The notes beneath the pieces were generated by a model. It had not been told where the DNA came from. It worked only from the letters and a program-made list of their open reading frames with translations, and ran no database searches. Both the position numbers and the translations under genes were made by a program. A stretch of DNA of 64,000 nucleotides from Patulibacter minatonensis DSM 18081 (GTDB lineage Bacteria > Actinomycetota > Thermoleophilia > Solirubrobacterales > Solirubrobacteraceae). The number at the start of each line of letters is the position of its first letter. Positions within the stretch are counted from its first letter, which is position 1. The stretch spans positions 5,058,171 to 5,122,170 of the forward strand of contig NZ_KI912613.1 in NCBI RefSeq assembly GCF_000519325.1, given 5' to 3'. Below are positions 557-21,995 of the stretch, in pieces.

Positions 557-668
557 GGTGCTGAGGTCTCCTGGGAGTCGAGGTCGTAGCGACGGTGAGG
601 GAAGGCGCCCACCGCCGCGGAGGCGGGGCGCACAGACGGGGATCATGGGACCTGCGCAGGACCGGACT

Positions 669-701
669 GTGAACATCCGGTGGAATCGACGTAAACACAA
701 C
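669..701 (-). promoter_or_regulatory. PHO-box-like direct repeat upstream of pstS
   Basis: Three hexamers sit exactly 11 bp apart: GTGAAC at 669, GTGGAA at 680 and GTAAAC at 691. Read on the pstS strand the core is GTTCAC, close to the GTTCACC direct-repeat unit described for Streptomyces PhoP boxes. It lies about 113-145 bp upstream of the pstS start. The spacing is seen; binding by a PhoP/PhoB-type regulator is inferred. Confidence 0.65.
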
Positions 702-721
702 ACCCGTCCAGGCCGGGCGTC

Positions 722-799
722 GTGAACGCATGGTTGACGACACCAATCAACGAACGGGCGCGAACCGGTCCCAGGTCGTTCACAACTCGACGTTCACGC
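722..799 (+). promoter_or_regulatory. Second and third GTTCAC/GTGAAC repeat clusters before the 820 gene
   Basis: GTGAAC at 722 and GTTGAC at 733 are 11 bp apart. GGTCCC at 767 and GTTCAC at 778 are again 11 bp apart, followed by another GTTCAC at 792. The last cluster ends about 20 bp before the chosen ATG at 820 and is in the GTTCAC orientation on that gene's strand. It could serve the plus-strand gene, pstS, or both. Units are less regular than at 669-701. Confidence 0.45.
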
Positions 800-819
800 G
801 TTGGGATCGTCCTGTCTCG

Positions 820-2256
820 ATGGCCGACGAGCGCCCACGCGACGACGTCGCCCCCGACGAGCCCGCGGGACCCTGCCGGTCCTGCGGCGTCCCGACCACG
901 ACCGCGCAGCGGTACTGCCTCGGGTGCGGCGAGCTCCTCGGCGCTCGGCGGCTCGACCCGCTCGCGGTGCTGCGGGACCAGGGCGTCCCGGCCCCGGCGC
1001 CGGTTCCCGCGGCGGCCCCGGCGGGCCGTGCCGCCCCGATGGCCGCCGCCGTCGCCGCGATCGCGGTCGCCGGGCTGGCCGGGTCCCTCGTCGCCGGCGG
1101 CGGCGAGGGCGCGCGGGCCGCGGTCGTGACGCGGCCGACGGCCGCGGCCGCGCCGGCACCGGCACCCACGACGACGGCCGCGAAACCGTCGGCGTCGGCG
1201 CCCGTCCCCTCGTCGTCCGACACGAGCGCGTCGGACGACACGAGCTTGACGGCGGACGCAGCGCCGGCCGAGGTGACCGCCGCCCCGGCGGCGACGGACA
1301 CGGGGACCGACACGTCCGCCGACACCGGCGGCGACACCGGGGACGACACGACGACCCCGGACGAGCCGGCGATCCCGCCCCACGTCTGGCTGCTCGCGAT
1401 CGAGGGGCCCCGCGCCCAGGAGGCCGTCGATCGCGTCGCAGAGCAGGGCGTGCGGCTCACCGGCGTCCGGCCCGTCTCCGCCGACACCATCGGGAACGCC
1501 ACGACCCTCGTCACGGGGAACCTGCCCGCCGGCGCCGCCGCGGCTCCCGGGACCACCACGACGACGCCCGCCGCGGGCACGACCACCACCGTCGATCCGT
1601 CGGCGGCGCCGACCGCGTCGCTCCCCGAGGAGCTGACCGCGGCCGACCAGACCTGGCGGAGCTACGTGGACGTCCAGCCCGGCGGCGCCGACGCCCTGCC
1701 CGGCGCGTGCGCCGACCCGCCCGCCGGCGACGCGGCCGCCGCGGCCCTCGCGGCCCGCACCCCGTTCGGGCGCATCACCGCGCTGCGGACGGACGACCTC
1801 TGCGCGAAGGGCACCGCGAGCCTCGAGACGCTCGGCAACGACGTCTCGTCCGGCGACTCCCTCCCGTCGTTCTCCTACGCGACGCTCGGCGGCTGCGCGC
1901 CGCCCGAACGCACCGTCGTCGCGCTGCCCGACCAGGTCTCCGACACGGTCACGGCGATCACGGAGAGCACCGAGTACCAGGAGAGCGGCGTCGTGATCGT
2001 CACGACGGTCGGCGCTGCCGACCCCTGCCCCACCACGCCCGCGGCCCCGGCCGCCCCGGTCGATCCCGCGGCGGCGCTGCCGCCCGCCCCGACGGTCGTC
2101 CTCCGCGCCGACGCGAAGGCCGGCTCGTCGCTCGACGTCGCGACGGACCTGCGCTCGCTCACGCGCCTGGCGGCCTCGACGCTCGGCGTCGACCCGCCCG
2201 GGACCTCCGGCGCGGACGACGTCCCGGCGCTCGAGCTCCCCGCCGCCGGCGGCTGA
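820..2256 (+). CDS. Zinc-ribbon membrane protein with a degenerate phosphoesterase-like extracellular domain
   Basis: 478 aa. Residues 19-36 form a zinc ribbon (CRSC...CLGC). One membrane segment follows (about residues 70-92), then an Ala/Thr/Pro/Asp-rich linker to about residue 185, and an extracellular domain starting PHVWLLAIEGP. That domain keeps landmarks of the PF04185 phosphoesterase family in order: a TWRSYVD segment, TPFGRI before a short Cys region, a P-SFSYATLGGC segment, and a final hydrophobic strand VVIVTT. The acidic metal ligands expected after that strand (T-DE in active members) are replaced by VGAA, so it is probably not catalytic. ATG 820 is preferred over ATG 730 because residues before it are a translation of the regulatory repeats. 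The family link is inference. Confidence 0.6.
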   Translation: MADERPRDDVAPDEPAGPCRSCGVPTTTAQRYCLGCGELLGARRLDPLAVLRDQGVPAPAPVPAAAPAGRAAPMAAAVAAIAVAGLAGSLVAGGGEGARAAVVTRPTAAAAPAPAPTTTAAKPSASAPVPSSSDTSASDDTSLTADAAPAEVTAAPAATDTGTDTSADTGGDTGDDTTTPDEPAIPPHVWLLAIEGPRAQEAVDRVAEQGVRLTGVRPVSADTIGNATTLVTGNLPAGAAAAPGTTTTTPAAGTTTTVDPSAAPTASLPEELTAADQTWRSYVDVQPGGADALPGACADPPAGDAAAAALAARTPFGRITALRTDDLCAKGTASLETLGNDVSSGDSLPSFSYATLGGCAPPERTVVALPDQVSDTVTAITESTEYQESGVVIVTTVGAADPCPTTPAAPAAPVDPAAALPPAPTVVLRADAKAGSSLDVATDLRSLTRLAASTLGVDPPGTSGADDVPALELPAAGG

Positions 2257-2258
2257 CG

Positions 2259-2312
2259 GACCGCCCGTCCGGCGGGCCGACCCGGGACGCACGGGCCGGG
2301 GCCCGGGCGGTC
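2259..2312. terminator. Possible bidirectional stem between convergent genes
   Basis: GACCGCCCG at 2259-2267 pairs with CGGGCGGTC at 2304-2312, with a long GC-rich interior that can itself fold. It lies just after the 820 gene stop and about 10 bp before the end of the convergent murein hydrolase gene. The large loop makes the call weak. Confidence 0.35.
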
Positions 2313-2322
2313 TCTCCCCCCC

Positions 2323-5300
2323 TCAGCGCTCCTGCTGGTCCTTCGCCGACGTCGCCGCGTCCGACACTGTCCGCCGGACCGACGGGTTGTCGATCTGGGC
2401 GAGCCGGTTCGTCAGGAGGCTCCACTGGCCGGGCTTCAGCACGGCGTTGACCTGCTTGCCGAGCTTCGCGTCGCCGTCGGTGGCCTCGCGCGGGTAGCCG
2501 ACGTGGATGTGGTCGTCGTGGTCGGCCATCGCCAACGTGTTGTCGGCGCCGGGGAACGTCATCAGGGTGATGATCTGGTTCGGCTTCATCGTGCCCTGGA
2601 GCTGCAGGAGCTTCCGGACGGTCGACGCGGTGATCGAGCCGGCGCCCTGGTGCCCCATGATCGGGATGCCGTTCACGGCCGAGATGTCGACGGCCGACCC
2701 GTACGAGTGCGCCGAGACGTTGCCCGACGCGGTCATCAGGCTGTGACCCGTCTTCAGGCAGGACACCGTGAGGTGCAGGCCGTTGGCGGTGAGGTACTCG
2801 AGCATCGCCAGCACGCGCCGATCGATCGCACCGGTCCGCACGTCCTCGCGGCCGCCGTCGTAGATCGTCAGGCGCGGGTCGGCGAGGACCCGGGCCTGGA
2901 GCTGCGCCTTGCTCATGAGCAGCAGGCGCCCGACGTCCGGACGGTCGCCGCGGTCGGCGACGAGCTCGCTGCGGTCGTCGTGCCCGAAGACCGACGCGTC
3001 GTCCAGGAGCCGCCAGCCGGCGATGATCGGCTTCGGGTCGATGCGCGGCGTGCCGTCGCCGGCCGGGCGGATCGCCAGGCGCAGCGACGTCGACGACGTC
3101 TTCCCGAGGATCGAGCCGGCGAGCACGCGGCTGCCGCGGACGAGCGGCCGCAGGCGGACGTCCTTCCGGCGCAGCGACCCGGCACGGACCATCCAGCGAT
3201 CGACGTCGTCGACGTGGTCGTCCTTCGCGGAGCCGGGAGCGGCCGCGACGGTCGGGGCCGTCCGCTTCGGCACGGCGGCCGGGGCGGGCTCCGGGGTCGT
3301 CTCCGTGCGTCCCCGCAGCAGCTGGGCGGTGGCGTACGGCCCGACCACCGTCCGCGTCCCGATCGTGGCGAGGCCGGGCGTCATGACCGGATCGCCGGTG
3401 CCGGGCAGCTGCGGCAGCACCGCGCCGACGCCGGAGGCGCCCGGCACGAACACCGGGACGGCCGGGGCCTGGAACGGCGCGGTGGGTCCGGCGGTGAGCG
3501 GTCCGGCCTCGCCGCCGGTCGCCGAGCCGTCGGACGGCGCGGTGCCGTCGCCCGGGACCGCGGCGACGGTCGCCGGCGTGCCGGTGGCGGGCATCGGCGT
3601 GGTGGGCAGGCCCGTCTCGGGGTTGACGGCGGGGGTCGCCGTCGCCGGGTCCCGCGGGGCCGGGTCCGCGGGCGGCGGCGTGAGGGCGACCGGGGGCGCG
3701 GGATCCGCGGGCGGCGCCGTCGCGGTCGTCGCCGGCGGGACCGGGACGGTCGTCGTGGCGGGCGGCGCGGCGACGGTCGCCGGACCGGGCGCGGACACGG
3801 CGCCCGCGGTCCCCCGGAGGCCGGCGTCGTCGCCGCGGCCGACGCCGTCGCGGCCGCTCGCGGGGCCACCGGCGTCGGCGACCGTCCGCGGGCGGGCCGG
3901 GCCGACGGCCGCGACGGATCCCCCGGCGGCGACGGGTGCGGCGGTCGGGCCGTCCTGTCCCGCGGCGGACGCACGCGTCGTCGCGGTCCGGCCGCTCGTG
4001 CGGCGCGCGTGGGTCGCACGCAGCCGGGGCCGGGAGCCGGCGGTCGCCGGCGCCTTCGGCGTCGGGTCCGCGCCCGTGGTGCCGGGGGCCTGCGCGTCGC
4101 CCTTCGCCGCGGCGCCGGTCGCGGCCGGCCCGTCCTCGTCGGTGGTCGTCGCGGCGCCCTTCTTCGCGGGGCGCGCGATCAGGTGCTGCTCGGCCAGCGA
4201 CCCGAGGTGGGCGTACTTGTAGCGGTTGCCGTAGGCGTCCCGGAGCTCGATGAAGCGGCCGAGCTTCGGGCCGTTGCCGATGCGGGTGACGGTCGCGTCC
4301 TGGATCGCGACGACGTCGGAGCCCTCCGGGGACGCGATCCGCGCCCAGCGGTCGGGGCCGTTCTCCCGCAGCACGAGGCCGTCGCGGTGCTTGCCGCTCT
4401 TCGTGACGCCCGTCCCGCTGCCGGCCACGTGGACCGGGAGCTGCGCGAGCGTCAGGCCGGTCAGCGACGCGACGACGTCGGTCGGCAGCCCGGCGATCGC
4501 CTTCGCCCGCGCCATCACGTCGTCGACGTACCAGCCGGCGTGGTTGTACGCGAAGACCGCGCGCTCGACGTCCTTGTCGCCTCCGGCGGCCTTCAGGTAC
4601 CGGGCCGCGGCGAAGATCGCGTCGACGGGGTTGTACGGGTCCGCCTTGCGGTCGCCGTTGGCGTCGACCCCGTAGGTCTTCCACGTGGCGGGCATGAACT
4701 GCATCCAGCCCTGCGCACCGGCGGTCGACACGCTGAGGTTGCGACCGTAGTCGGTCTCGATCTCGTTGATCGCGGCCAGAACCTCCCAGCGGATCCCGTA
4801 CTGGACGCCGGCGGCCTGGTAGATCGGCAGCAGGAACGGCGGGATCCGGAAGCGGGCGACGGACAGCGCCGAGAGCTTCGTCGCCGGGGCGTCGAGGAGC
4901 TCCGCGGCGGTCTTCTTCGCGTCGGCCGCGTCCTTCGCGTCCTTCGCGTCCTTCGCGTCGTCGCGCACGTCGTCGGCGGACCGGCCCCCGGAGGTGGCGC
5001 GCTTCTTCGCCCGCTTCGCCTTCTTCCGCTTCGGCGCGTCCTTGCCGCGGCGCTTCTTGCCGTGCGGGGTGCTGCCGGTCACCGACGGCGCGGACGACGG
5101 CCCCTTCGGGCTGCGCTCCGGGATCGGCACGGGCGTGGTCGTCGTCGGGATCGGCGCGGGGACCGTCGTCGTCGACGCGGGCGGGCCGACCGGGGCGGCG
5201 GGCACGGGGTCGCTCGGCGTCGCCGGCGCGGCCGTCGTGGCCGGGGCGGCGTCGGTCGTCGCCGGGGTCTCGCCGTCGGCGAACGCCGCGGACGGCGGGA

Positions 5301-5346
5301 TCGCGAGGACCGCGAGCAGGGCGAGCGTGGGGATCCTGGGGCGCAT
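2323..5346 (-). CDS. Exported multidomain murein hydrolase: lytic transglycosylase, split M23-like domain, M15-like peptidase
   Basis: 1007 aa with a signal peptide (residues 1-22), a Pro/Thr-rich stretch and a Lys-rich patch (about 80-130). An SLT lytic-transglycosylase domain follows (about 160-280) with the catalytic-Glu context NEIETDYG and the GWMQFMPATW motif. An M23-like half domain (about 330-385) ends in YAHLGSL. Around 270 residues of Pro/Ala/Thr-rich sequence come next, then the second M23-like half (GSRVLAGSILG ... IRPAGDG ... IDPKPIIAGW). The C-terminus (about 820-960) has SAHSYGSAVDIS and DDHIHVGY, the zinc-ligand pattern of M15 D,D-peptidases. It is last in a five-gene operon, 2 bp after the preceding stop. 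It probably remodels peptidoglycan outside the membrane. Confidence 0.8.
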   Translation of the reverse strand: MRPRIPTLALLAVLAIPPSAAFADGETPATTDAAPATTAAPATPSDPVPAAPVGPPASTTTVPAPIPTTTTPVPIPERSPKGPSSAPSVTGSTPHGKKRRGKDAPKRKKAKRAKKRATSGGRSADDVRDDAKDAKDAKDAADAKKTAAELLDAPATKLSALSVARFRIPPFLLPIYQAAGVQYGIRWEVLAAINEIETDYGRNLSVSTAGAQGWMQFMPATWKTYGVDANGDRKADPYNPVDAIFAAARYLKAAGGDKDVERAVFAYNHAGWYVDDVMARAKAIAGLPTDVVASLTGLTLAQLPVHVAGSGTGVTKSGKHRDGLVLRENGPDRWARIASPEGSDVVAIQDATVTRIGNGPKLGRFIELRDAYGNRYKYAHLGSLAEQHLIARPAKKGAATTTDEDGPAATGAAAKGDAQAPGTTGADPTPKAPATAGSRPRLRATHARRTSGRTATTRASAAGQDGPTAAPVAAGGSVAAVGPARPRTVADAGGPASGRDGVGRGDDAGLRGTAGAVSAPGPATVAAPPATTTVPVPPATTATAPPADPAPPVALTPPPADPAPRDPATATPAVNPETGLPTTPMPATGTPATVAAVPGDGTAPSDGSATGGEAGPLTAGPTAPFQAPAVPVFVPGASGVGAVLPQLPGTGDPVMTPGLATIGTRTVVGPYATAQLLRGRTETTPEPAPAAVPKRTAPTVAAAPGSAKDDHVDDVDRWMVRAGSLRRKDVRLRPLVRGSRVLAGSILGKTSSTSLRLAIRPAGDGTPRIDPKPIIAGWRLLDDASVFGHDDRSELVADRGDRPDVGRLLLMSKAQLQARVLADPRLTIYDGGREDVRTGAIDRRVLAMLEYLTANGLHLTVSCLKTGHSLMTASGNVSAHSYGSAVDISAVNGIPIMGHQGAGSITASTVRKLLQLQGTMKPNQIITLMTFPGADNTLAMADHDDHIHVGYPREATDGDAKLGKQVNAVLKPGQWSLLTNRLAQIDNPSVRRTVSDAATSAKDQQER

Positions 5347-5348
5347 GG

Positions 5349-6143
5349 TCAGTCCTCGCGGGCGTTCTGGCCCTGCTTCTTCGCGAACGCGCACCGGAAC
5401 CGCTCGGGGCTGGAGACCGGCTTGCTGCCCGCGAACCCGCCCTTGTCGTGGTTGTCGAAGACCGTCACGTACTGGAGGGAGTCGGGGGCCGGGTCGGCGG
5501 GCAGCGGGATCGGGTCGCTCTCCCCCGCTCCCGGGTCGCCGGTGGCGCCCGCCGTCGAGCCCTCGCTGCCGGCGGCGCTGCTGCCGGCGGTCGTGGTGAC
5601 GAGCGTGGAGCTCATCTCGCGGCGGTCGCCCAGGCCGTCGTCGGGGAGGATGTCCGTCGACGCCGTCGTCGAGTTGTCGTCGAGCGTGCTGGCGAGCTTG
5701 ACCTGGTCGGCCGCGCCGATCAGCTCCTCGGCCGACGGCAGCCAGCCGCCGAGCTCGACGCACTTCTGGGTCGCGTAGAAGTAGTCGTTCTTCCCGACGT
5801 CCTCGGTGTCGACCGGCTGCGCGCCGCTGAGGATGCACCAGGTCCCGAGGTCGATCGTGTCGTTCGGGCAGGTCGTCGTGACGTCCTTGGCCGCGAGGTC
5901 GCCGAGCTTCGAGGCGGTCTTCGCCTTGCCGACGGTCGGGATCGCCTTCGCCGGGAACTTCCGGTTCGCACCGAGGCGGAGGATCCCGTACGGCTGCGGC
6001 TTCGTGCTCGGCGTCGACGGGCGACGCACCGGTGCGTCCTTCGCCGAGCCGATGCCGCTCATGGTGAAGAGCAGGGCCAGGGTCGACACCACCAGGGCGG
6101 CGGCGGCCAGCACCGTGGGCGACGGCTTGACGATCCTCATCAT
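5349..6143 (-). CDS. Small exported protein with N-terminal anchor and Cys-containing RFRCAF C-terminal domain
   Basis: 264 aa. A single N-terminal hydrophobic segment (about residues 8-30) acts as signal or anchor. The rest is outside and holds CPNDTIDLGTWC, a GGWLPSAEELIGAA segment, a SLQYVTVFDN segment and the end motif SPERFRCAF. The Cys pattern and W/G-rich layout resemble C-type-lectin-like or formylglycine-type folds, but this is only a guess. A clear paralog lies at 18992-19678. ATG 6143 overlaps the stop of the giant gene before it (ATGA), so translation is coupled. Function unknown; the constant pairing with a large exported propeller protein suggests a partner role. Confidence 0.75.
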   Translation of the reverse strand: MMRIVKPSPTVLAAAALVVSTLALLFTMSGIGSAKDAPVRRPSTPSTKPQPYGILRLGANRKFPAKAIPTVGKAKTASKLGDLAAKDVTTTCPNDTIDLGTWCILSGAQPVDTEDVGKNDYFYATQKCVELGGWLPSAEELIGAADQVKLASTLDDNSTTASTDILPDDGLGDRREMSSTLVTTTAGSSAAGSEGSTAGATGDPGAGESDPIPLPADPAPDSLQYVTVFDNHDKGGFAGSKPVSSPERFRCAFAKKQGQNARED

Positions 6144-9100
6144 CGGGTCCTCCGGTCGTCCCGGGACGTGGCCCGGGCGTAGTCGTACGGGTGGTTGCGG
6201 CGCCGGCGGGTGCCGAGCGCCGTGCCGCCACCCACGGCGGCGATCAGGACGAGCGCGACGACCGCCGCGCCCTGTCCGGGTCCGGCCGAGTGCCGGTCCG
6301 ACGCGACCGCGTCGTACTGCATGTAGGCCTTGGAGGACTCCTCCGCGACCTCCTCGTCCTTCTGGCGCTCCGCCTGCGTGACCGGCTGGGAGACCGGGAC
6401 GTTGATGCTCGCGCCGCTGGTGCCCGGGGGCGGCGCCGGCGACCCGGCGGCCGGGGGCGGCGGGAGCGCGAGCGGCGGGGCGAGGGTCGGCTGGACGAAG
6501 AGCGGCGCGGGCGGGAGCGCGACGGAGGGCTTCGCGGCCGGGGCCGGCGGGACGGCCGGCGTCGAGACCGCGGGCGTCACCGGCGCCGGGGGCGCGGGCG
6601 ACAGGACCTGCGGGATCGGCACGTCGACCGTCGGGTTCGAGGTCGCCGGGGGCGACGACGGCCCCGGGGGCGTCGCGGGCGCCGTCGACGGCGGCGCGGC
6701 GGCCGGGAACCGCGACGCGGCGAGCGCCACCGTGCCGCACGGACGCAGCGCGCTGCCCGCGCGGACCGTGACGGTGGTCTGGTACCGCAGGCCGCCGGAC
6801 TCGATCGAGATCGTCGTCGTGCCGGCGTTGAACGGGCACATCAGGCCCGAGGTCGGGTCCGGGACCGGCTTGTCGGTCGCGGGGTCGACGAACGGCTTGC
6901 GCGGGTTGCTCGACGCCGGGTCGACGCGCACGAAGTCCGCGATGTCCGGGTCGCTCGAGTGGAACGTCGCCTCGGGGTCGATGCGGGAGGTGGCGCAGTC
7001 CGCGCGCTGCTGGCCGACGCAGAGCGGGCTCGGCAGCGTCACGTACGGGTCCGCGCCGTTGCCCTCGCCGCCGCCGGTCGAGCCGCCCTGGACCCAGTTG
7101 CCGCCGGACCGCGGGCGGCGCCCGAGGCCCTGGAACAGCGCGGGCTGGCTGCGGTTCAGCAGGCGGCCGTCGACCGCGTCGATCGCGAGGTCGTCGATCA
7201 CGGGGATCAGGCGCACCGCGGCGGGCGCGCGGTTCGACGTCGCGTCGCGCTTGGTGAGGTCGAGCTCCAGGAGGAGCAGCCCCGGGACACCCCGGCCCTC
7301 GACGTCGTCCTGCGCGCGGTAGCCGAGCGAGCCGCTCGCGAACGTCGGGATCGTGTCGTCGGAGGCGAACGGGATCGTGCCGCGGCGCTGGACGCCGGCC
7401 CCGTCGTAGACGTAGGCGGAGGCCCCGCCGTCGCGCAGCTGGACGGCCACCTTCGTGCCGTCGGTCGCGGCGCCGGTGTCCCGCGGGTTCAGGCTGCGGC
7501 TGCCGGAGACGACGACGGCGACGCCCTTGGCCTTCGCGTCGGCGAGCACCGCGTCGAGCCACGAGGACTGGTCCTCGGCCGGGTTGCCGGCGGGATCGCT
7601 CTGGAGCAGCGATCCGGCGGAGTTGTCGATCACGACGAGCCGGACGACGCCCTCGGGCGTGGTCACGTCGACCGCGTAGTGGGTGCGGGCCCGTCCGGCC
7701 GCGGCGGCGTTGCCGATCGCGACGGGCGTCGTGCCCGTGGCGGCGCCGCCGGTCCCGAGCGGGGCCTGGAAGCCGGAGAACGCGCCACCGAACGTCGCGG
7801 TCGAACCGCCGGACGCGTCGCCCGGGGAGGTCGCGGCGAACACGGGGAGCGACCCGCCGGCCAGGAGCGTCGCGTAGCGCTGCTCCTCGGCCGCCGAGGC
7901 GGTCGCGGTGGTCCGGGCGACGCGCCCGCCGGTGTAGACGAACGCGCGCGGTCCGGTCGGGATCGCACCGAGCGTCCCGGCGGTCTGCACCGCGCGGGCG
8001 AGCGTCCGGTCGGGCATGGTGTCGATCGGCGCGAGGTCCGCGCAGACCGCCGCGCACTGGGCGTGCCCGCCGACGAGCAGCCGCGCGCGGCCGGCGTCCA
8101 TCGCCGGCGCCTGCACGGTCACGTTGCTCGACGTCTGCGGTCCGGCCGGGTCGTAGCGCGAGACGGAGGCCGTCTCCGCGGCGTCGGGCGCCGGGTCGTC
8201 GCCGCGGCCGAGCAGGTCGACCCCGCCGGTCCAGCCGCCGATCGCCCACCCGCGGCCGGCCGGGTCGGTCAGGAGCGCGAGGTTCGGGTCGGACTTGCGG
8301 GACCGCTCCGTCGTCGGCGCGTCGAGCTGCGTGCGCTCCTCGTCGCGCCAGCCGGCCGGGGTCTCGCGCAGGAGGTACCCGTCGACCGGCAGCGAGAACG
8401 GCTGGCGGCGCGGCGCGGGCGACGCCGGATCGGAGGGCGGGACCTGGAGGTCGTCGACGGTCGGCCAGACGCGCGTGGAGACCGAGACGACGGCGCGGAC
8501 CCGGTCGCCGTCGCGGAAGGCCGACGCCGCGACCGCGGTGCCGGTCAGCGGCTGGTCGCTGAAGCGCCACGCCCCGCCGGCGCTGTCGCGCTCGAGCACC
8601 AGGCCCTTGTTGTCGCCCGTGGTCCCGACGGCGACCGCGCCGCCGTCCGGCAGCCCGGCGACGGCGTAGACCGCGCCGGCGCCCTTCAGGCGGGCGAGGA
8701 GCGCCGTGACCCCGGGATCGGTCTTCCAGCCGTCGCCGCTCTCGGTGAGGACGCCGGCGGTGCCCGCCGCCGCGAGGGCCTGGCTGCCGGCGAACGCGAC
8801 GCCGTAGAGGTCCGCGCGCCCGCCGCCCGGGCCGCTCGTGGCGGCCTCGGCGGGCAGGCTCATCGGCTCCCAGCTCTTGCCGTAGCGCAGGAGGACGCCG
8901 TCCCGGCCGACCGCGAAGCCGCGCTCCGGGTCCGCGGGGTCGAACGCGATGCCGGTCAGGTGCCCGGTGAAGTCGTACGGGGTGGCGGGATCGGTCTCCC
9001 ACAGCCCCGTGACGCGGCGCCAGCGCCACATCGTGCCCTCGTCGCCGACGGCGAAGGCCGTGTCGGCGGTCGGCCACGCGACGCCGCGCATGTCGTTGCG

Positions 9101-12372: not shown

Positions 12373-14462
12373 CGGGTCCGTCCCTTCGCCGCGGTGCGGG
12401 CCACGTACGAGCGCTTCAGGCGGTAGGCGCGGGTCGCGGTCGTCGCGGCGGCGCCCGTCGGACGGAAGCGGAGGGTCATGCGGACGTCCAGGAGGTAGGG
12501 CCGGCGGCGGAGCGCGGTGCGGGCCTTGGCCCCCACCTTCACGGTGACGCGCACGGTCCCGGCGCGGGCGGGGGTCCGGCGGGCGGAGCCGACGGTCACG
12601 CTGGTCGAGCGGACCTTCCGCCCGACCTTCCGCTTCTGGGTCCCGCGGGCCGACGCGGTCAGGGTGCCCTTCGCGGGCACCTTCACGCTGACGGTCGCGG
12701 TGCCGGTGCGGCGCGAGACGGTGACGCGGCCGACGGTGGTGAAGAAGCGGGGCTTCAGCGGGGTGATCGGCGTGGGATCGACGGGGACCGGCGGCGCCGC
12801 GAGCGGGAGCACGCGGTCCCCGCGGCCCGCGCTCGAGACCAGGGTGCGGGCGACGAGGACGTCGTCGACCCCGTTGGCGTCGCCGACGAAGAGGTTCCCG
12901 TCGGGCGCCGGGAACGCGACGCTCGACGCGTCGGCCGACGGCACGGCGATCCCGGTCGGCGTGGAGGGCTGCGACGCGGTCACGTAGTCGCCGCCGTCGT
13001 CGCCGGACGTCACGCGCTCCACGGTGCGTGCCGCGAGGTCGGCGACGTAGACGTTGAAGGTCAGGAGGTTGCCCGTCGGGAACGTCCCGATCGGCTGGAG
13101 CCCGTCGAACCGGTTGTCCGTCGACGTGAACGTCGCGTGGCGGCCGTCAGCGGCGAGCCGGCCTCCGAGCATGGCGCCGCGGTTCTTCACCGCCGGGTAG
13201 GACCAGGCGACCTGGACGCCCTGCTTGCGGGCCAGGCCGGACCGCATGTCCGCCACGTAGCTGGTCGACGGGCGATAGGCGAGCGGGTCGAACGGACGCC
13301 GGGTCGCGGACGACGCGAACAGCACCGAGGAGCCGTCGGCGCTGAGGCCCTCGAACGCGAGCGAGCTGACGTCGCCGTTGAAGTCGACGCCCTCGCTCGT
13401 CCGGAACGGCCCGGCGCACGATCCGCCGTCGTCGGGCCCCGGTGCCGGGGTGCCCGGCGCGCAGGCGGGATCGTCGAGGTCGATCGCCCCGGCGACCCGG
13501 CGGCTCGGCGCCTGCGGGGCGGCGGAGAGGTCGCGCCAGAGGAGCGTCGGCTGGGGGCCGAACGGCGCCTCGCCGGGCAGCGTCGGCGTCTGGAGCTGGC
13601 CGTCCCCGGCGGTCCAGACGACCTTCCTGCCGTCGCCGCTGATCGCCGCGGTCGGCACGGTCGCGCCGATGGCGGTCGGCGCGGGCGCGGGGACGCCGGC
13701 CTGCGACGCGTCGTCGGCGCGGCGGCTGACCAGTCGGGTCGTCCGCGCGTCGAGGTCGCGGACCCACACCTGGCGCTGCGGCGTCGTGATCGCCAGGCGG
13801 TCGGGGAGGTCCGACACCACGGTCGTGACGAAGACCGCACGACGGCCGTCGGCGCTCAGGGCGTAGCCCGCGGCGCCGGGGACGCTGCCCTGGTCGTCGG
13901 CGGCGTACTGGGCGCCGAGGTCCGAGCCGTCGCGGGCGGAGACGAGCGCGAAGGCGCCCCCGCCCGCCATCGGGCGGTCCATGTCGCGGACGTAGACGTC
14001 GGGGGTCGACGGGGCGGCGTCGCCCGCGGCCAGCCGCGCGGGGCTGCCGAAGAGGACGTAGCGCCCGTCGGCGCTGATCCCGGCGAGACCCGACGTCGTG
14101 CCGGCGTTCGAGGTCGTGCCGTCTGCCCGGCGGATCTCGCGCGGCGGGGCGACGAGGTCGACCGCGCCGGTGACGAGGTCCTTGCGGACGAGGCCGGCGG
14201 AGGGCCGCACGTCGCCCGTGGACCCGGGGCCCATGAGCACGGACGCCGCGGTCTGGAAGACGACGTAGCGCCCGTCGGCGGAGATCAGGGGCGCGGCGCT
14301 CTGGTCGTCGCCGACGAGGGAGCCGAACGCCGACGCGGGGGTCGCGCCGGGCGAGAAGGTCGCGGTCGCGGCCGGGGCCGCCACCCCGGCCGCGACGAGC
14401 GCCGACGTCAACGTGCTCATGAGCACGGGACCGCGGGCAGCGCGCGGCGCGCCTGGTCGCAT
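12369..14462 (-). CDS. Exported TolB-like (PD40) beta-propeller protein, first gene of the operon
   Basis: 697 aa. The N-terminus is basic and hydrophobic (signal peptide to about residue 36). It contains repeated WD40-like PD40 blades of the type ISADGRYVVFQT, ISADGRYVLFGS, LSADGRRAVFVT, ISGDGRKVVWTAGD and LSADGSSVLFAS, as in TolB and related exported proteins. The C-terminal about 130 residues form a basic beta-rich domain (VTVSRRTGTATVSVKVP ...). ATG 14462 begins the first plausible signal peptide; an internal ATG 14 codons on is an alternative. PHO-like repeats lie at 14529-14561, and the next gene overlaps by ATGA. The fold is confident, the role unknown. Confidence 0.75.
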   Translation of the reverse strand: MRPGAPRAARGPVLMSTLTSALVAAGVAAPAATATFSPGATPASAFGSLVGDDQSAAPLISADGRYVVFQTAASVLMGPGSTGDVRPSAGLVRKDLVTGAVDLVAPPREIRRADGTTSNAGTTSGLAGISADGRYVLFGSPARLAAGDAAPSTPDVYVRDMDRPMAGGGAFALVSARDGSDLGAQYAADDQGSVPGAAGYALSADGRRAVFVTTVVSDLPDRLAITTPQRQVWVRDLDARTTRLVSRRADDASQAGVPAPAPTAIGATVPTAAISGDGRKVVWTAGDGQLQTPTLPGEAPFGPQPTLLWRDLSAAPQAPSRRVAGAIDLDDPACAPGTPAPGPDDGGSCAGPFRTSEGVDFNGDVSSLAFEGLSADGSSVLFASSATRRPFDPLAYRPSTSYVADMRSGLARKQGVQVAWSYPAVKNRGAMLGGRLAADGRHATFTSTDNRFDGLQPIGTFPTGNLLTFNVYVADLAARTVERVTSGDDGGDYVTASQPSTPTGIAVPSADASSVAFPAPDGNLFVGDANGVDDVLVARTLVSSAGRGDRVLPLAAPPVPVDPTPITPLKPRFFTTVGRVTVSRRTGTATVSVKVPAKGTLTASARGTQKRKVGRKVRSTSVTVGSARRTPARAGTVRVTVKVGAKARTALRRRPYLLDVRMTLRFRPTGAAATTATRAYRLKRSYVARTAAKGRTR

Positions 14463-14493
14463 CAGCGACCCGGATGAACGTAGACGGCGCACC

Positions 14494-14517
14494 GGCCGGG
14501 GACTGTAGGTCCCGGCC
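14494..14517 (-). other. Short hairpin in the leader of the 14462 gene
   Basis: GGCCGGGGAC (14494-14503) faces GGTCCCGGCC (14508-14517), a near-perfect inverted repeat with a 4-nt loop. It lies between the PHO-like repeats and the start codon, so it would sit in the 5' leader. It could be a pause or attenuation hairpin, or a readthrough terminator. Confidence 0.4.
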
Positions 14518-14528
14518 CCGCCGTTTTC

Positions 14529-14561
14529 GTGAACTTCATGGGAACCCGGCGAAAACATGGA
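14529..14561 (-). promoter_or_regulatory. PHO-box-like direct repeat upstream of the five-gene operon
   Basis: GTGAAC at 14529, GGGAAC at 14540 and GAAAAC at 14551 are exactly 11 bp apart. A second pair, GTCAAC at 14571 and GTCAAC at 14582, is also 11 bp apart. Position is 67-100 bp upstream of the TolB-like gene start, in the same orientation as the pstS repeat. Confidence 0.6.
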
Positions 14562-14602
14562 CGCCTGTTCGTCAACGTGTCGTCAACGCGTTCCTCAACG
14601 GG

Positions 14603-14632
14603 CTCGGGCCGGCGCGTGCGCGCCGGCCCGAG
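14603..14632 (-). terminator. GC-rich hairpin terminator after the PstS-like gene
   Basis: CTCGGGCCGGCGCG (14603-14616) is followed by 2 nt and its exact reverse complement (14619-14632). It lies about 70 bp past the stop of the PstS-like gene and has no U-tract. It separates that gene from the downstream operon promoter. Confidence 0.7.
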
Positions 14633-14703
14633 GAGAACCCCGTGGGGAAACCGGTCGCCCTCCCGGGGACCCCGACGGGCCCCGGGATCGCGACCCGGGC
14701 CGG

Positions 14704-16665
14704 TCAGCCCTTGATCTTGACCGAGATCGTCTTGGTGACCGACGTCTTGGAGCCGTCGGCGTTCGTGTAGGTCACCTTGAAGGCGATCTTCGCCTTCTTG
14801 CCGGACTTCAGCGCCTTCTTGCCCTTGCTCGTGGGCTTCAGCGTGATCTTCAGCGCGCCGGCCTTCTTGGCCGTCGCGGAGCCGGAGAGGACGGTGACCT
14901 TCTTCTTGCCCGAACCCGTGGTGGCGGAGACGGAGACCTTGCCCGCAGCGGACGGCGAGACCGACAGCGTGACCTTGCGGCCCTTGACGGCGGCGGCCTT
15001 GGAGACCGAGACCTTCGGCTTGACGACGGCCGGCGTCGACGGCTTGACGGGCGTCGTGGGCGTCACCGGGGTGGTGGGCGTCACGGGCGTCGTCGGCGTC
15101 ACCGGCGTGGTGGGCGTCGTCGGCGTGGTCGGCGTCGTGCCGGTGCCACCGCCGCCCGTGCCCGGGTCGACGACCGTCTGCTTGTTCCACGTCAGCGACT
15201 GCTGCGCGGCGCGGGCGACGGCGAGGACGCTGCCGCTCTGCGCGGCGCCGCCGACGACCGTCGGCAGGCCCTGGTAGCCGGCCGGCGCCAGGGCGGCCTG
15301 GCCACCCGTGACGTTGAGGATGTAGCCGAGGTAGTCCTTGACGCCGCGGGCCTGGGCCTGCGTGTAGTCCGGGTCACCGGCGGCGTGGCCGACGTTCGCC
15401 TTGGCGAGGTCCTCCCACACGAGCTCGTACGTCAGCGCGCAGACGGGGTAGTCGGCGGCCGAGGCGCTGCCCGTGACGTCGTACCAGCTCTGCTGGACCG
15501 TCGGCAGGGCGCCGGTCGTGACGTCCTTGTACGTGACGTTCTTGCAGTTGGCGCCGGTGTCGGTGGTGCCGTTGACGTCGTTGAGCGCCGGCGACTGGTA
15601 GACGCCGTCGCCCTTGCGCTCGACGCTCAGCCAGATCGTCGAGTCCGTGTCACCGGCGGCGCCGGCGGCGGTGTCGAAGCCCTTCGAGCGCGCGGTGGCG
15701 AGGTCGGCATAGCTGATGCCGCCGTCCGTCGTCTGGAGCTTGAGCTTGTCCATCAGCGAGCCGCCGCCGTTGGCGTCGGCACGGACGACGGCGCTCGCGC
15801 CGGTGTCCGCGGGCCACGCGGTGTTGCCCAGCGACGTCGGGAAGTCCGACGACTTGATGTCGCGCAGGTAGTTCTTCTGGGCGTACGTGGTGCCCGAGGA
15901 GTCCAGGCGCACGACGCGCTTGAAGACCTTCGCCTTGCAGGCGGTGGTGCCCGCCGCGTCGACGCCCGCGATGTTCGGGAGGATCTGGCCCCAGGTCGAG
16001 AAGTCCGGGGACGCCGCGAACGCGCCCTCGAGGGCGGCGCGGGTGATCCGGCGCGACTGCGCGTTGTTCGGGACGGTGCAGCCGTTCGGGAGCTGCACGA
16101 CGGTGGCGACCGAGGACTGCGCGACCGGCACCGTGTAGAGGACGGCGTCGTCGGCGGTGCCGGCGATCTGGTCCGGGCCGTTGTTCGCGGCCGCGATCTC
16201 CGCGGGCTTCGGCGGCTCGTCGGCGGCGCCGAACTGCAGCGCCGTCTTGCGGACGCCCGGGTTGCCCTTCGGCGAGCCGGCGGTCGCGTCCGGGCTCGTC
16301 GTCGCGCCGACGACCCCACGGCCCTCGCCGGAGCCCTGCGGGTCGAAGCTGACGGAGTTCGTGCCGCCGTCGGCGGCGAGCTTGAAGCTCGCGCAGCCGC
16401 CGCTGCCGGCGGTGGCGTAGCCGAAGCCGACGGCCGTCGCGGCGGCCGGGTTGGCGACGACGCTCGACGCGCCCCACGCGAGGTGCGCGGTCCGCTGGAA
16501 CGAGGCGCCGCGGCCCTGGATGGTCGTCGTGCCCTGGCATTGCGCCGAGAACGCGGGGTCGAAGGCGGCGCTGGCGCCCCCGGGAAGAATGGCCAGCGCG
16601 ACGATCGTGCCCGTCGCGGCCGTGGCCGCGGCGGCGCCGATGCGCAGCCCGGTGGTGGTCCTCAT
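14704..16665 (-). CDS. PstS-like periplasmic-binding-fold protein with Pro-Thr linker and C-terminal beta domain
   Basis: 653 aa. Signal peptide at residues 1-34; then a large PBP-like/PstS-superfamily region to about residue 495 with IQGRGASFQRTAHLAW near the N-terminus, a GATTSPDA stretch, VRLDSSGTTYAQKNYL (the SGT anion-binding type segment), and Cys residues. A linker of TTP/VTP repeats follows (about 510-545), then a Lys/Ser/Thr-rich beta domain to the end that may attach to the envelope. It is much longer than transport PstS (about 350-400 aa), so it may be a surface scavenger or sensor rather than the transporter subunit. A good SD (AGGAG) precedes ATG 16665. PHO-like repeats at 16740-16772 support phosphate control. 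Confidence 0.75.
   Translation of the reverse strand: MRTTTGLRIGAAAATAATGTIVALAILPGGASAAFDPAFSAQCQGTTTIQGRGASFQRTAHLAWGASSVVANPAAATAVGFGYATAGSGGCASFKLAADGGTNSVSFDPQGSGEGRGVVGATTSPDATAGSPKGNPGVRKTALQFGAADEPPKPAEIAAANNGPDQIAGTADDAVLYTVPVAQSSVATVVQLPNGCTVPNNAQSRRITRAALEGAFAASPDFSTWGQILPNIAGVDAAGTTACKAKVFKRVVRLDSSGTTYAQKNYLRDIKSSDFPTSLGNTAWPADTGASAVVRADANGGGSLMDKLKLQTTDGGISYADLATARSKGFDTAAGAAGDTDSTIWLSVERKGDGVYQSPALNDVNGTTDTGANCKNVTYKDVTTGALPTVQQSWYDVTGSASAADYPVCALTYELVWEDLAKANVGHAAGDPDYTQAQARGVKDYLGYILNVTGGQAALAPAGYQGLPTVVGGAAQSGSVLAVARAAQQSLTWNKQTVVDPGTGGGGTGTTPTTPTTPTTPVTPTTPVTPTTPVTPTTPVKPSTPAVVKPKVSVSKAAAVKGRKVTLSVSPSAAGKVSVSATTGSGKKKVTVLSGSATAKKAGALKITLKPTSKGKKALKSGKKAKIAFKVTYTNADGSKTSVTKTISVKIKG
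15040..15140. repeat. Short tandem repeat encoding the TTP/VTP linker
   Basis: About 100 bp of degenerate 9-12-bp units of the GGCGTC-GTC/ACC type inside the PstS-like gene, encoding tandem Thr-Thr-Pro and Val-Thr-Pro. Such slippage-prone repeats vary in copy number between strains. It is coding, not CRISPR. Confidence 0.7.
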
Positions 16666-16739
16666 CGTGTGTTCGCTCCTGAGAAGGGGTGGGACCGGAC
16701 GACGTCGCCGTCAGGACACGGGCACTTTCGTCCTCGACC

Positions 16740-16772
16740 GACAACACCGCGTGAACATTGCGTGGCCGTGGT
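16740..16772 (-). promoter_or_regulatory. PHO-box-like direct repeat upstream of the PstS-like gene
   Basis: GACAAC at 16740, GTGAAC at 16751 and GTGGCC at 16762 are spaced by 11 bp, 75-107 bp before the PstS-like start at 16665. Same orientation as the pstS and 14.5-kb repeats. Confidence 0.6.
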
Positions 16773-16855
16773 TCCGACATGTTGTTAACGAACGGGGACG
16801 CCGCGGGCGCTCGAGGGGCACGAATCCCCTGCTCTCGTGCGGATCTGCCCCGACG

Positions 16856-16953
16856 ATGAACGGCGCGTCAACACTCGACCGTGGCGTTGAACCGCCTCGA
16901 CACGGAACCGGACGGACGTCCAGCGCGCTGTGAACAGAGCGTGAAACGTGAAC
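16856..16953 (+). promoter_or_regulatory. Two PHO-like repeat pairs upstream of the 16998 operon
   Basis: ATGAAC at 16856 and GTCAAC at 16867 are 11 bp apart. GTGAAC at 16930 and GTGAAA at 16941 are again 11 bp apart, with an extra GTGAAC at 16948 out of phase. The second pair is 45-70 bp before the start at 16998. The whole 16666-16997 gap holds only these repeats and the ones serving the divergent PstS-like gene. Confidence 0.55.
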
Positions 16954-16997
16954 AACCCGCGCGGGCTGCGGCCCCTGAGCCGCTACGGTGCCCCGCG

Positions 16998-18995
16998 ATG
17001 TCGTCGCGCCCCGGCCTCGTGTCGCTCGTGGCCCTCGCCGCGACGACCGCCCTCGCACTCCCCGCAGCCTCCTCCGCACGTGTCGGTCCAGGGGTGACCG
17101 TCGCCGGGCCCGACCCGGCGATCATCGACCTCGGCCAGGTCGCGATGGCGCCCGACGGCACCGGCGGCGTCGTCTACCGGCGCTCGGAGGACGGTGCCCC
17201 GCACGTCTACGCCGCCCGGTACGACGGCGAGCGCTGGTACGCCCCGCAACGGGTCGACGCCGGCCAGCGGTTCTCGTCGACGTGGCCGCGGATCGGCGCG
17301 GCCGACGGCGGACGACTCGTCGTCACCTGGGTGCAGGAGGGTCCGCCGAACCAGGACTCCATGTACTCCGCGTCCCTGCCGCGCGGCGCCGGGGCGTTCC
17401 AGGCCCCGACCCTCGTCGACTTCACGATCGGCGACTCCCGGGCGGCCTACCCGTCGCTGGCGATGGCCCCGAACGGCGACGCCCTGCTCGTGTACCAGCG
17501 GGTCACCGCGTTCTCCGACCCGCTGCTCGGCAACGACTACGTCGACAGCCAGATCAAGCTCGCCCGCTTCAACGGGTCGCGCTGGAGCGGGCTCGGCGTC
17601 CCCGTCAACCGCATCGCGACCGCGCCGCTGCGCCAGCCCGACGCCGCCAACGCGCCGAAGGTCGCGATCGGCGCGGACGGTGCCGCGGTCGTCGCGTGGC
17701 AGGAGCCCGACGAGGCGCTCCAGGACCGGGTCTGGGCCCGCCGCGTGTTCGGGCAGCGTCTCGGGATCGTCCTGCCGGTCAGCCCCACCACCGTCGGCGG
17801 GGCCCCCGCCCGGGGCGCCGCGGACGCCCTCGACGTCGCGATCTCCGACAACGGCCGCGCCGTCGTCGCCTTCCGGCAGCAGCCCGATCCGTCGGCCCGC
17901 GGGGAGGCCCCGAAGGTCTACGTCAACCAGCTCGACGAGCCGGAGAGCGGGGCCGGGAAGGCGTTCACGGGCGCGCAGCCCGTCGCCACGCCCGGCGGCG
18001 CGGCGGCGGGAGCCCCCCGGGTCGACGTCGGCGGCCGGTTCGGCATGCTCGTCGGCTGGGCCCAGGGCGGCGTCGGCGCGCTCGCCCAGGGCACCGGCCC
18101 GACGCCGGGCGCCGGGGTCGAGGTCGGGCCGTCGAGCGGTCCCGCCCCCGTCGTCGCCCAGGGCGTCGACGGCCGCGGCGCGGTCGCGACCGCCACGACC
18201 GACGGCGGGGGGCGCGTCGTGGTCCGCGAGCTCGCGGGCGACCGCGTCACCGCGACCCAGGGCGTCTCGGGCGCCGTCGGCGGACCGGTCGACGGGCTCT
18301 CGATCGCGGGGGCCGGCAACGGCAACGCGCTCGTCGGCTTCCGGCAGGGCCTCCCCGACGAGGGGCAGGTCGTCGTCTCCCGCGTCGACGCCCCGCCGGT
18401 CCCGTTCCTCGTCGAGGTCCCGCCGGACTGGACGAACGCCCGCCGTCCGCTGATCACCTGGCAGGCGCCGCCGAACGACCCGCGACCCCAGCGCTACACG
18501 GTCCACGTCGACGGCCGGGTCGCCGGGCGGACGATCTACGACCGCAGCCTGCGGCTCGCCCCGGGCGCGCTCGCCGACGGGCGCCACCAGGTGACCGTGA
18601 CCGCCGACAGCCGCACGGGCGGCGGCAGCACGACGACGCCCGTCGCGACGTTCGGCGCCGACCGTCGCACGCCGCTCGTCACCGTCACACGGCGCACCCG
18701 CAGGATCCGGGTCCGGATCGCCGACCCCGGCCGCAAGGGCCACGCGTCCGGCGTCGCGGCAGGCGGCACCGTCGTCGACTGGGGCGACGGGCAGACCGCC
18801 GACGGCGCCACGCGCGCCGCGAGCCACGTCTACGCCAAGGGCGGCCGGTACAGCGTGCTGGTCCGCGCCCAGGACGCGGCCGGGAACGTCGTCGCCGTGC
18901 GACGCGCGTTCCAGGTCCCCGCCCCGAAGCGCCGCACCCCGTCGGGGTCCGCGAAGAAGCGGTCGACGTCGTCCACGAAGGGCCGCACCCGATGA
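16998..18995 (+). CDS. Exported beta-propeller protein with C-terminal PKD domain
   Basis: 665 aa. Signal peptide at residues 1-29 (LVALAATTALALPAASSA). The body has propeller-like blades built on MAPDGTGGVVYRR, MAPNGDALLVYQR, IGADGAAVVAWQEPD, ISDNGRAVVAFRQ and similar. From about 590 a PKD-type Ig fold is seen (VVDWGDGQ ... HVYAKGGRYSVLVRAQDAAGN), then a basic Ser/Lys/Arg tail. ATG 16998 is chosen because it starts the signal peptide. Its stop overlaps the next gene (ATGA). It mirrors the minus-strand operon: a large exported propeller protein followed by a small RFRCAF protein. Substrate unknown. Confidence 0.75.
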   Translation: MSSRPGLVSLVALAATTALALPAASSARVGPGVTVAGPDPAIIDLGQVAMAPDGTGGVVYRRSEDGAPHVYAARYDGERWYAPQRVDAGQRFSSTWPRIGAADGGRLVVTWVQEGPPNQDSMYSASLPRGAGAFQAPTLVDFTIGDSRAAYPSLAMAPNGDALLVYQRVTAFSDPLLGNDYVDSQIKLARFNGSRWSGLGVPVNRIATAPLRQPDAANAPKVAIGADGAAVVAWQEPDEALQDRVWARRVFGQRLGIVLPVSPTTVGGAPARGAADALDVAISDNGRAVVAFRQQPDPSARGEAPKVYVNQLDEPESGAGKAFTGAQPVATPGGAAAGAPRVDVGGRFGMLVGWAQGGVGALAQGTGPTPGAGVEVGPSSGPAPVVAQGVDGRGAVATATTDGGGRVVVRELAGDRVTATQGVSGAVGGPVDGLSIAGAGNGNALVGFRQGLPDEGQVVVSRVDAPPVPFLVEVPPDWTNARRPLITWQAPPNDPRPQRYTVHVDGRVAGRTIYDRSLRLAPGALADGRHQVTVTADSRTGGGSTTTPVATFGADRRTPLVTVTRRTRRIRVRIADPGRKGHASGVAAGGTVVDWGDGQTADGATRAASHVYAKGGRYSVLVRAQDAAGNVVAVRRAFQVPAPKRRTPSGSAKKRSTSSTKGRTR

Positions 18996-19678
18996 CCCGT
19001 CACCGTCCCTCCCCCGCGCTCGTCCTCGGCGCCCTGGCCCTCGTGGTCGCCGCCGTCGCCGCGACGTTCGCGACGACCGGCGTCGGCGAGGCGCGCAACG
19101 CCGCCGTCCGGGCGAGCCCGACGCCGAAGAAGGGCGCCGTCCTCCGGCTCGGCCGCGACGCGCGGTTCGCCGCGTCGGCCGTCCCGACGGTGGAGCGGGC
19201 CCGGACCACGCTGCGCCTCGGCCGGCTGCGGGCCCAGGACGTCCGGCTCGGCTGCCCGTCCGGGACCGCCGACCTCGGCACCTGGTGCCTCGATCGCGGC
19301 GTCCGCGGGACGGCGGACTTCGCCGGCGCATCGCGGGCGTGCGTCCGCCTCGGCGGCCGCCTCCCGACCGCCGGCATGCTGATCGGCGCCGCCCCGAAGC
19401 TCCGCCTCTCGGGACGGCTCGACGACCGCCCCTCGATGGCGTTCATCGACCCCGCCGGCCGCCGGGACCTGCGGGAGCTGTCGTCGTCGCTCTTCACGAC
19501 GACCACGGGGAGCGCCGCCTCCGGGTCCGCGACGAACCCCGCCCCGTCGACGCTCCAGTACGCGACCGTGTTCGACAACGGCAACGCCGGCGGGTTCGCC
19601 GGGGGCGTCCCCAGCGGGTCGCCCGAGCGGTTCCGCTGCGCGTTCCTCGAGCGGCAGCCGACGGCCCCGAAGCGGTGA
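18992..19678 (+). CDS. Small exported RFRCAF-domain protein, paralog of the 5349-6143 product
   Basis: 228 aa, one N-terminal hydrophobic segment (about residues 7-28). It shares with the 5349-6143 protein the blocks VLRLG, AVPTVERA (versus AIPTVGKA), CPSGTADLGTWC, CVRLGGRLPTAG-LIGAA, LDD, DLRELSSSLFTTT, LQYATVFDN, GGFAG and SPERFRCAF. It is shorter because of less linker before LQYATVFDN. It overlaps the propeller/PKD gene by ATGA, so the two are translated together. A perfect 26-nt palindrome follows its stop. Exported; molecular role unknown. Confidence 0.75.
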   Translation: MTRHRPSPALVLGALALVVAAVAATFATTGVGEARNAAVRASPTPKKGAVLRLGRDARFAASAVPTVERARTTLRLGRLRAQDVRLGCPSGTADLGTWCLDRGVRGTADFAGASRACVRLGGRLPTAGMLIGAAPKLRLSGRLDDRPSMAFIDPAGRRDLRELSSSLFTTTTGSAASGSATNPAPSTLQYATVFDNGNAGGFAGGVPSGSPERFRCAFLERQPTAPKR

Positions 19679-19679
19679 T

Positions 19680-19705
19680 CTCGCGGGCCCACGTGGGCCC
19701 GCGAG
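19680..19705 (+). terminator. Perfect 26-nt palindromic terminator
   Basis: CTCGCGGGCCCAC (19680-19692) is followed at once by its exact reverse complement to 19705, starting 2 bp after the stop codon. No U-run follows, as is common for intrinsic or pause hairpins in high-GC actinobacteria. Confidence 0.75.
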
Positions 19706-19725
19706 ACCCCGCCGTCCGTCCAGGC

Positions 19726-19780
19726 GTGAACGCGACGTGAAGGCCTGCTGTTGGAATGTCGTGAACACGAGGTTGTTCAC
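19726..19780 (+). promoter_or_regulatory. Double PHO-like repeat upstream of ftsH
   Basis: GTGAAC at 19726 and GTGAAG at 19737 (11 bp apart) form one pair; GTTGGA at 19750 and GTGAAC at 19761 (11 bp apart) form a second, followed by an inverted GTTCAC at 19775. The FtsH-like gene starts at 19932. The rest of the 19679-19931 gap shows no gene. Confidence 0.55.

Positions 19781-19931: not shown

Positions 19932-21995
<2,064 letters not shown>

What the first reader, a model, noticed from the sequence alone, without database searches (positions are those of the whole stretch)
669..19780. A chain of 11-bp-periodic GTTCAC/GTGAAC repeats marks a candidate Pho regulon over 20 kb
Seen: in the gaps before pstS (669/680/691), the 820 gene (722/733, 767/778), the 14462 operon (14529/14540/14551; 14571/14582), the PstS-like gene (16740/16751/16762), the 16998 operon (16856/16867; 16930/16941) and ftsH (19726/19737; 19750/19761), related hexamers recur 11 bp apart. 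Known: PhoB/PhoP boxes are direct repeats at 11 bp, and the Streptomyces unit is GTTCACC. Inference: one phosphate-starvation regulator controls the whole region, including envelope proteins not normally tied to phosphate.
Basis: partly seen in the sequence, partly recalled or inferred. Interest (0 to 1): 0.78.

Follow-up and report, generated by a model that had tools for sequence, protein, structure and literature searches.

The report
Patulibacter phosphate-starvation regulon covering envelope operons
The repeated 11-bp DNA words are genuine phosphate-starvation switch sites: a soil bacterium (Patulibacter) appears to switch on, together with its phosphate uptake pump, a neighbouring set of secreted cell-surface proteins and a spare FtsH membrane protease.

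Summary
GTTCAC units (GTGAAC on the + strand) recur at 11-bp spacing in every promoter gap of the first 20 kb, far above chance.

Genome-wide, the only exact GTTCAC-N5-GTTCAC sites are a triple between a DUF47 gene and a second pstSCAB-phoU operon, and a pair before ppk1. Weaker triples precede GDPD, phytase-like and phosphodiester-glycosidase genes. Across the class, 23 of 26 near-perfect triples sit beside pst, DUF47/pit or PhoP-like regulator genes. The same sequence was footprinted for PolR of Microlunatus.

The genome is a Patulibacter (Thermoleophilia). The whole pst1–envelope–ftsH2 cluster and its boxes are conserved in the genus; parts of it sit beside pst in two other genera. Forward boxes keep a fixed register to a –10 hexamer (10+11n bp; 12 of 14 promoters). 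Reversed boxes lie 37 bp before it (16998, ftsH2, DUF47).

The likely regulator is a response regulator in the pst2 operon, accompanied by a receiver-less paralog with the same recognition helix. This is a known kind of switch in a lineage where I found no earlier report; its control of an FtsH paralog and secreted envelope proteins is new. No expression data exist.

The parts
669..696 (-). Pho box of pstS1: three 11-bp units, read on the - strand GTTTAC-N5-TTCCAC-N5-GTTCAC
   Evidence: conserved in G001, G002, G004, G007
642..647 (-). predicted -10 hexamer CATGAT of pstS1, 21 bp from the last unit
   Evidence: same 21-bp spacing in G001 and G004
2..556 (-). pstS1 (N-terminal part in the window), first gene of pstSCAB
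   Evidence: Pfam PBP_like_2; pstC-pstA-pstB follow in L029
778..783 (+). GTTCAC unit before gene 820 (partner at 767 is weak); -10-like GATCGT at 805-810, 21 bp on
   Evidence: unit position conserved in G001 and G004
820..2256 (+). gene 820: secreted/membrane protein with zinc-ribbon-like N-terminus, no Pfam family
14529..14556 (-). Pho box of the 14462 operon: three units, GTTTTC-N5-GTTCCC-N5-GTTCAC on the - strand
   Evidence: nearly letter-for-letter in G004 and G007
14502..14507 (-). predicted -10 hexamer TACAGT of the 14462 operon, 21 bp from the last unit
   Evidence: TACAGT/TAGTGT at 21 bp in G000, G001, G004, G007
14571..14587 (-). second, weaker pair upstream of the 14462 operon
   Evidence: 18.7 bits; exact pair GTTCACGAGTCGTTCAC in G004
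2323..14462 (-). five-gene envelope operon: 12369-14462 (PD40-type repeat, secreted), 10615-12372 (secreted, predicted mostly beta), 6140-10618 (1492 aa, weak Ycf48-type beta-propeller match, C-terminal TM), 5349-6143 (N-terminal TM), 2323-5346 (SLT transglycosylase plus weak M23)
   Evidence: syntenic in Patulibacter genomes
16740..16767 (-). Pho box of the PstS-like gene 14704; -10-like GAAAGT at 16724-16729
   Evidence: conserved in G002 and G007
14704..16665 (-). secreted PstS-like protein with C-terminal beta domain
   Evidence: TIGR00975 PstS E 1.6e-8, below curated cut-off; PDB PstS profile hit E 2.7e-5
16856..16872 (-). pair ATGAAC-N5-GTCAAC, not conserved, doubtful
   Evidence: 16.2 bits; absent in G002 and G007
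16930..16946 (-). reversed Pho box 37 bp before the -10 of gene 16998
   Evidence: 23.1 bits; GTGAACAGNGNGTGAAW in G000, G002, G007; one of only two genome-wide matches of reversed box plus TANNNT
16984..16989 (+). predicted -10 hexamer TACGGT of gene 16998
16998..19678 (+). secreted protein with PKD-like domain (16998-18995) and 18992-19678 membrane/secreted protein
19726..19742 (-). reversed Pho box pair upstream of ftsH2
   Evidence: 21.4 bits; GTTCACAACTGGTTCAC in G004
19750..19766 (-). second reversed pair of ftsH2, 37 bp before TATGGT
   Evidence: GTGAAC-37-TA(T/G)GGT in G000, G002, G004, G005, G001 by alignment
19804..19809 (+). predicted -10 hexamer TATGGT of ftsH2
19932..21995 (+). 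ftsH2: second FtsH paralog (AAA plus peptidase M41); the other copy is at G000:C1:5285125, 42% identical

Best explanation
The repeats are Pho boxes. A phosphorylated OmpR/PhoB-family response regulator binds them as a head-to-tail chain, one subunit per 11-bp unit, when phosphate is scarce. In forward orientation the chain ends a fixed 10+11n bp upstream of a -10 hexamer, in place of a -35 element, and recruits RNA polymerase to pstSCAB, gene 820, the five-gene envelope operon and the PstS-like gene. In reversed orientation the box sits 37 bp upstream of the -10 of gene 16998 and ftsH2 (and of DUF47 elsewhere) and probably activates from about -50 to -66. The likely regulator is the response regulator encoded in the second pst operon (G000:C1:3357685-3358569). 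A receiver-less DNA-binding paralog made from the first gene after the strongest box may act as a feedback or latch factor. The cell would thus co-express uptake, surface PstS-like binding proteins, wall-remodelling enzymes and a membrane protease under phosphate starvation. Shown here: sites, statistics, conservation, register, gene context. Inferred: binding protein, phosphate response, sign of regulation at reversed boxes, roles of the envelope proteins.
For: Exact genome-wide sites lie only before pst2/DUF47 and ppk1; weaker triples lie before GDPD, phytase-like, NAGPA, metallophosphatase and LTD genes. Enrichment and 11-bp specificity. Conservation of boxes in the syntenic cluster across Patulibacter. 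Class-wide, 23 of 26 near-perfect triples lie beside pst, DUF47/pit or PhoP-like genes. In-register -10 in 12 of 14 promoters (shuffle maximum 7 of 14), and class-wide TANNNT in register 10 at 14 against at most 4 in any other. Reversed boxes at 37 bp. Only two of 28 Trans_reg_C matches in the genome carry the recognition helix GDRS[VI]DV[FY]V; class-wide regulators beside Pho boxes carry a matching DR[ST]VDV[LF]V helix. GTTCACnnnnnGTTCaC was footprinted for PolR at pit, with pstS and ppk promoters bound (PMC6754071).
Against: No expression or binding data. The PhoR kinase of this genome was not identified. Two listed pairs are not conserved. NAGPA (22 bp) and the metallophosphatase do not follow the -10 register. 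The sign of regulation from reversed boxes is unknown. In G073, G134 and G013 an ftsH2-like gene sits next to some related envelope genes without pst and without detected boxes, so that module need not be phosphate-related.
Confidence: 0.88

Rival explanations
1. The boxes are bound by another OmpR-family regulator sharing the GTTCAC word (for example an oxygen- or redox-responsive PolR-type regulator), so the trigger is not phosphate.
For: PolR in Microlunatus uses the identical sequence and the authors speculate that its kinase senses oxygen; AfsR shares PHO boxes in Streptomyces.
Against: The regulator genes with the matching recognition helix lie inside pst operons here and beside pst class-wide, in one case next to a PhoR-like kinase and pstS; the targets are phosphate-scavenging genes.
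Confidence: 0.1
2. Only pstS, 820, the 14462 operon and 14704 (forward boxes) are activated; reversed boxes at 16998 and ftsH2 repress those genes or serve neighbours.
For: PhoB/PhoP subunits bind head-to-tail, so orientation should matter; no open-access paper combining the terms pho box, PhoB and reverse orientation was found; PhoP occasionally represses.
Against: The reversed boxes keep an exact 37-bp spacing to TANNNT in several species at 16998 and ftsH2, and mostly at DUF47, a phosphate-transport gene; ftsH2 has no divergent neighbour in this gap.
Confidence: 0.3
3. The repeats are chance words in GC-rich intergenic DNA.
For: Individual units are short and degenerate; some listed pairs are weak.
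Against: About 75-fold enrichment over other intergenic DNA, 11-bp specificity and conservation between species.
Confidence: 0.01

Closest known systems
Streptomyces coelicolor PhoP boxes (GTTCACC direct repeat units of 11 nt; Sola-Landa 2005, 2008, as cited in PMC6988585 and PMC4415409)
   Same: Same core word, same 11-bp head-to-tail spacing, same core targets (pstS, ppk, glpQ-type GDPD)
   Different: Class Thermoleophilia; fixed -10 register and reversed boxes at 37 bp found here; targets include ftsH2 and a lineage-specific envelope operon
PolR of Microlunatus phosphovorus, GTTCACnnnnnGTTCaC (PMC6754071)
   Same: Identical recognition sequence; targets pstS, pit, ppk
   Different: PolS-PolR proposed to sense oxygen; targets do not include the envelope/FtsH cluster
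E. coli PhoB pho box (CTGTCAT, 11-bp units, in place of -35)
   Same: Unit length and promoter architecture (box just upstream of a -10; the latter from general knowledge)
   Different: Different core word; last recognisable unit usually 21 or 32 bp, rather than about 10 bp (general knowledge), from the -10
FtsH1/3 of Synechocystis in iron and phosphate stress circuits (Krynicka 2019, cited in PMC11126600)
   Same: Membrane protease tied to the phosphate response
   Different: There the protease acts on regulatory circuits; here an ftsH paralog is predicted to be a transcriptional target of the Pho regulator

Membership tests
Pho box of the PhoB/PhoP family | Direct repeats at 11-bp spacing | tested here: met
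   Spacing 11 enriched, spacings 8-10 and 12-13 not
Pho box of the PhoB/PhoP family | Core word GTTCAC as in actinobacterial PhoP/PolR | tested here: met
   literature
Pho box of the PhoB/PhoP family | Sites precede pst, ppk and other phosphate-scavenging genes in the same genome | tested here: met
Pho box of the PhoB/PhoP family | Box placed just upstream of a -10 element | tested here: met
   12 of 14 promoters in register; predicted, no mapped TSS
Pho box of the PhoB/PhoP family | Binding by a phosphorylated PhoB/PhoP-family regulator | not testable with these tools
   Candidate P0001 identified with receiver and Trans_reg_C domains
Pho regulon | Induction by phosphate starvation | not testable with these tools
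   No expression data
Pho regulon | PhoR-type sensor kinase paired with the regulator | tested here: inconclusive
   Not found beside P0001; a PhoR-like kinase is beside the equivalent regulator in another family of the class (L144)
PstS phosphate-binding protein (gene 14704) | Match above the curated PstS cut-off | tested here: not met
   TIGR00975 E 1.6e-8 but 34 bits against a cut-off of 205; Pfam none; so PstS-like only

The most novel reading that the evidence does not exclude
Patulibacter and some family relatives run a phosphate-starvation envelope programme in which an FtsH paralog, secreted beta-propeller proteins, a lytic transglycosylase and PstS-like surface proteins are co-induced with Pst. 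Boxes are used in both orientations at fixed, orientation-specific distances from the -10, and the regulator acts together with a receiver-less, self-induced DNA-binding paralog that latches the response.
Probability: 0.4. Interest if true: 0.7.

Novelty: new member of a known kind. Interest (0 to 1): 0.52.

Why it matters
It defines by sequence a phosphate regulon in Thermoleophilia, a soil class in which a search found no paper mentioning a Pho box. It gives a testable promoter rule and assigns a physiological context to large unannotated envelope proteins and a second FtsH. It also points to a receiver-less PhoB-like regulator as a possible built-in feedback element.

Tried and rejected
Structure prediction of 14704 and of 10615-12372 gave low confidence (mean pLDDT 43 and 47), so no fold search was run. 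The genome-wide named search with the 1492-aa protein returned only three loci, two labelled Patulibacter and one an unclassified actinomycetote. Chance origin was rejected. GlnR boxes (GTnAC-n6-GaAAc, also about 11-bp periodic; general knowledge) were considered and rejected, because the conserved word is GTTCAC with TCAC fixed and the targets are phosphate genes. The 37-bp reversed rule was looked for outside the genus at the class-wide sites and not found, so it is claimed for Patulibacter only. Streptomyces -10 distances could not be compared because the 2008 NAR paper is not held. Plasmid records hold no relative of 14704.

Full report
Observation. A PWM trained on pst2 and ppk sites outside the window separates the cluster's intergenic DNA from the genome background (7 of 2,534 against 3 of 85,084 positions at 14 bits or more; 11 against 5 at 10 bits or more). 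The effect is specific to 11-bp spacing. All strong boxes in the cluster have GTTCAC on the - strand.

Genome-wide meaning. The window lies at G000:C1:5058171-5122170 of a 5.52-Mb, single-contig genome; named relatives are Patulibacter. With one mismatch allowed there are 25 GTGAAC-N5-GTGAAC sites, with none for the reversed-pattern control. The three exact ones are an overlapping pair between DUF47 and a wHTH-pstS-pstCA-pstB-phoU-response regulator operon, and one upstream of ppk1. Three-unit matches with up to 3 mismatches number 11, control 0. Two are in the cluster (pstS, 14462 operon). Others precede GDPD, a calcineurin-like phosphoesterase with collagen repeats, an LTD protein, a phytase-like protein and a NAGPA phosphodiester glycosidase; one lies inside a gene.

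Conservation. The pst1-820-envelope operon-PstS-like-16998-ftsH arrangement is syntenic in congeners G001 and G004 and, as far as their contigs reach, in G002, G005 and G007, with boxes in the same gaps. Alignment shows the pstS, 14462, 14704, 16998 and ftsH boxes conserved against diverged surroundings; 722/733 and 16856/16867 are not. In the class, 25 of 120 genomes hold near-perfect triples (control 1), and 23 of the 26 loci examined outside the genus lie beside pst, DUF47/pit or a PhoP-like regulator.

Promoter architecture. Taking automatically the last unit with at least 5 of 6 matches (the four window sites and one other were anchored by hand on the same rule), 12 of 14 distinct promoters have NANNNT at 10, 21, 32 or 43 bp; the best register in shuffles averages 3 and never exceeds 7. 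At class-wide sites TANNNT falls in the same register 14 times, and at most 4 times in any other. Reversed boxes in Patulibacter have TANNNT exactly 37 bp away at 16998 (3 genomes), ftsH2 (4 genomes, a fifth by alignment) and DUF47 (5 of 7 genomes; 38 bp in two). The combined reversed pattern occurs only twice in the genome even with one mismatch: DUF47 and 16998. These are predicted, not mapped, promoters.

Regulator. Of 28 matches to Trans_reg_C in the genome, only P0001 (response regulator ending the pst2 operon, receiver domain apparently intact) and P0002 (receiver-less, first gene after the strongest box) carry GDRS[VI]DV[FY]V in the recognition helix; the regulators beside boxes in other families of the class carry the matching DR[ST]VDV[LF]V. 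Removal of the receiver makes PhoB bind constitutively (Ellison and McCleary, cited in PMC4415409, section read), hence the latch idea, which is inference.

The envelope cluster. The 14462 operon encodes secreted PD40-type, Ycf48-type and SLT/M23 proteins. 14704 is PstS-like but below curated thresholds. The FtsH is a second paralog. In G017 the same ftsH2 sits divergently beside pst1 with box-like repeats between, followed by a 5349-like gene, receiver-less wHTH, DUF47, pst2, phoU and the P0001-like regulator in one cluster. In G135 ftsH2, five related envelope genes, pst1, the regulator, DUF47 and the start of pst2 are contiguous. In G073, G134 and G013 ftsH2-like genes accompany some related envelope genes without pst. 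A module of FtsH2 and secreted proteins therefore seems to have been placed under Pho control in part of the family; this is an inference from neighbourhoods.

Comparison. The word and spacing match Streptomyces PhoP and Microlunatus PolR sites, and tandem binding with strict spacing is structurally established for M. tuberculosis PhoP (PMC4832192). Membership as Pho boxes is well supported; regulation by phosphate is not shown.

Noticed in passing
L030:8936-9295 (G000:C1:3351935-3352294): Receiver-less PhoB-like winged-helix protein directly after the strongest Pho box; relatives in G014, G015, G017 and G051, and throughout the genus.
   Followed up: partly
window 19932-21995; L224; L225: ftsH2 is a second FtsH paralog that neighbours pst1 in other genera of the family.
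   Followed up: yes
L227, L228, L229, L218: ftsH2-like genes next to 6140-, 10615- or 2323-like secreted proteins without pst: a possible stand-alone FtsH/envelope module.
   Followed up: partly
L179:978 and L185:974: Box-like pairs upstream of two other OmpR-type response regulators (metal-type and CreB-like by NCBIfam).
   Followed up: no
L075:10638-18000, L073:9318-17368: In G001 and G004 the PstS-like gene is expanded to several paralogs, some with their own box-like units.
   Followed up: partly
window 44672: Isolated box-like pair (12.5 bits) in a long intergenic gap; significance unknown.
   Followed up: no
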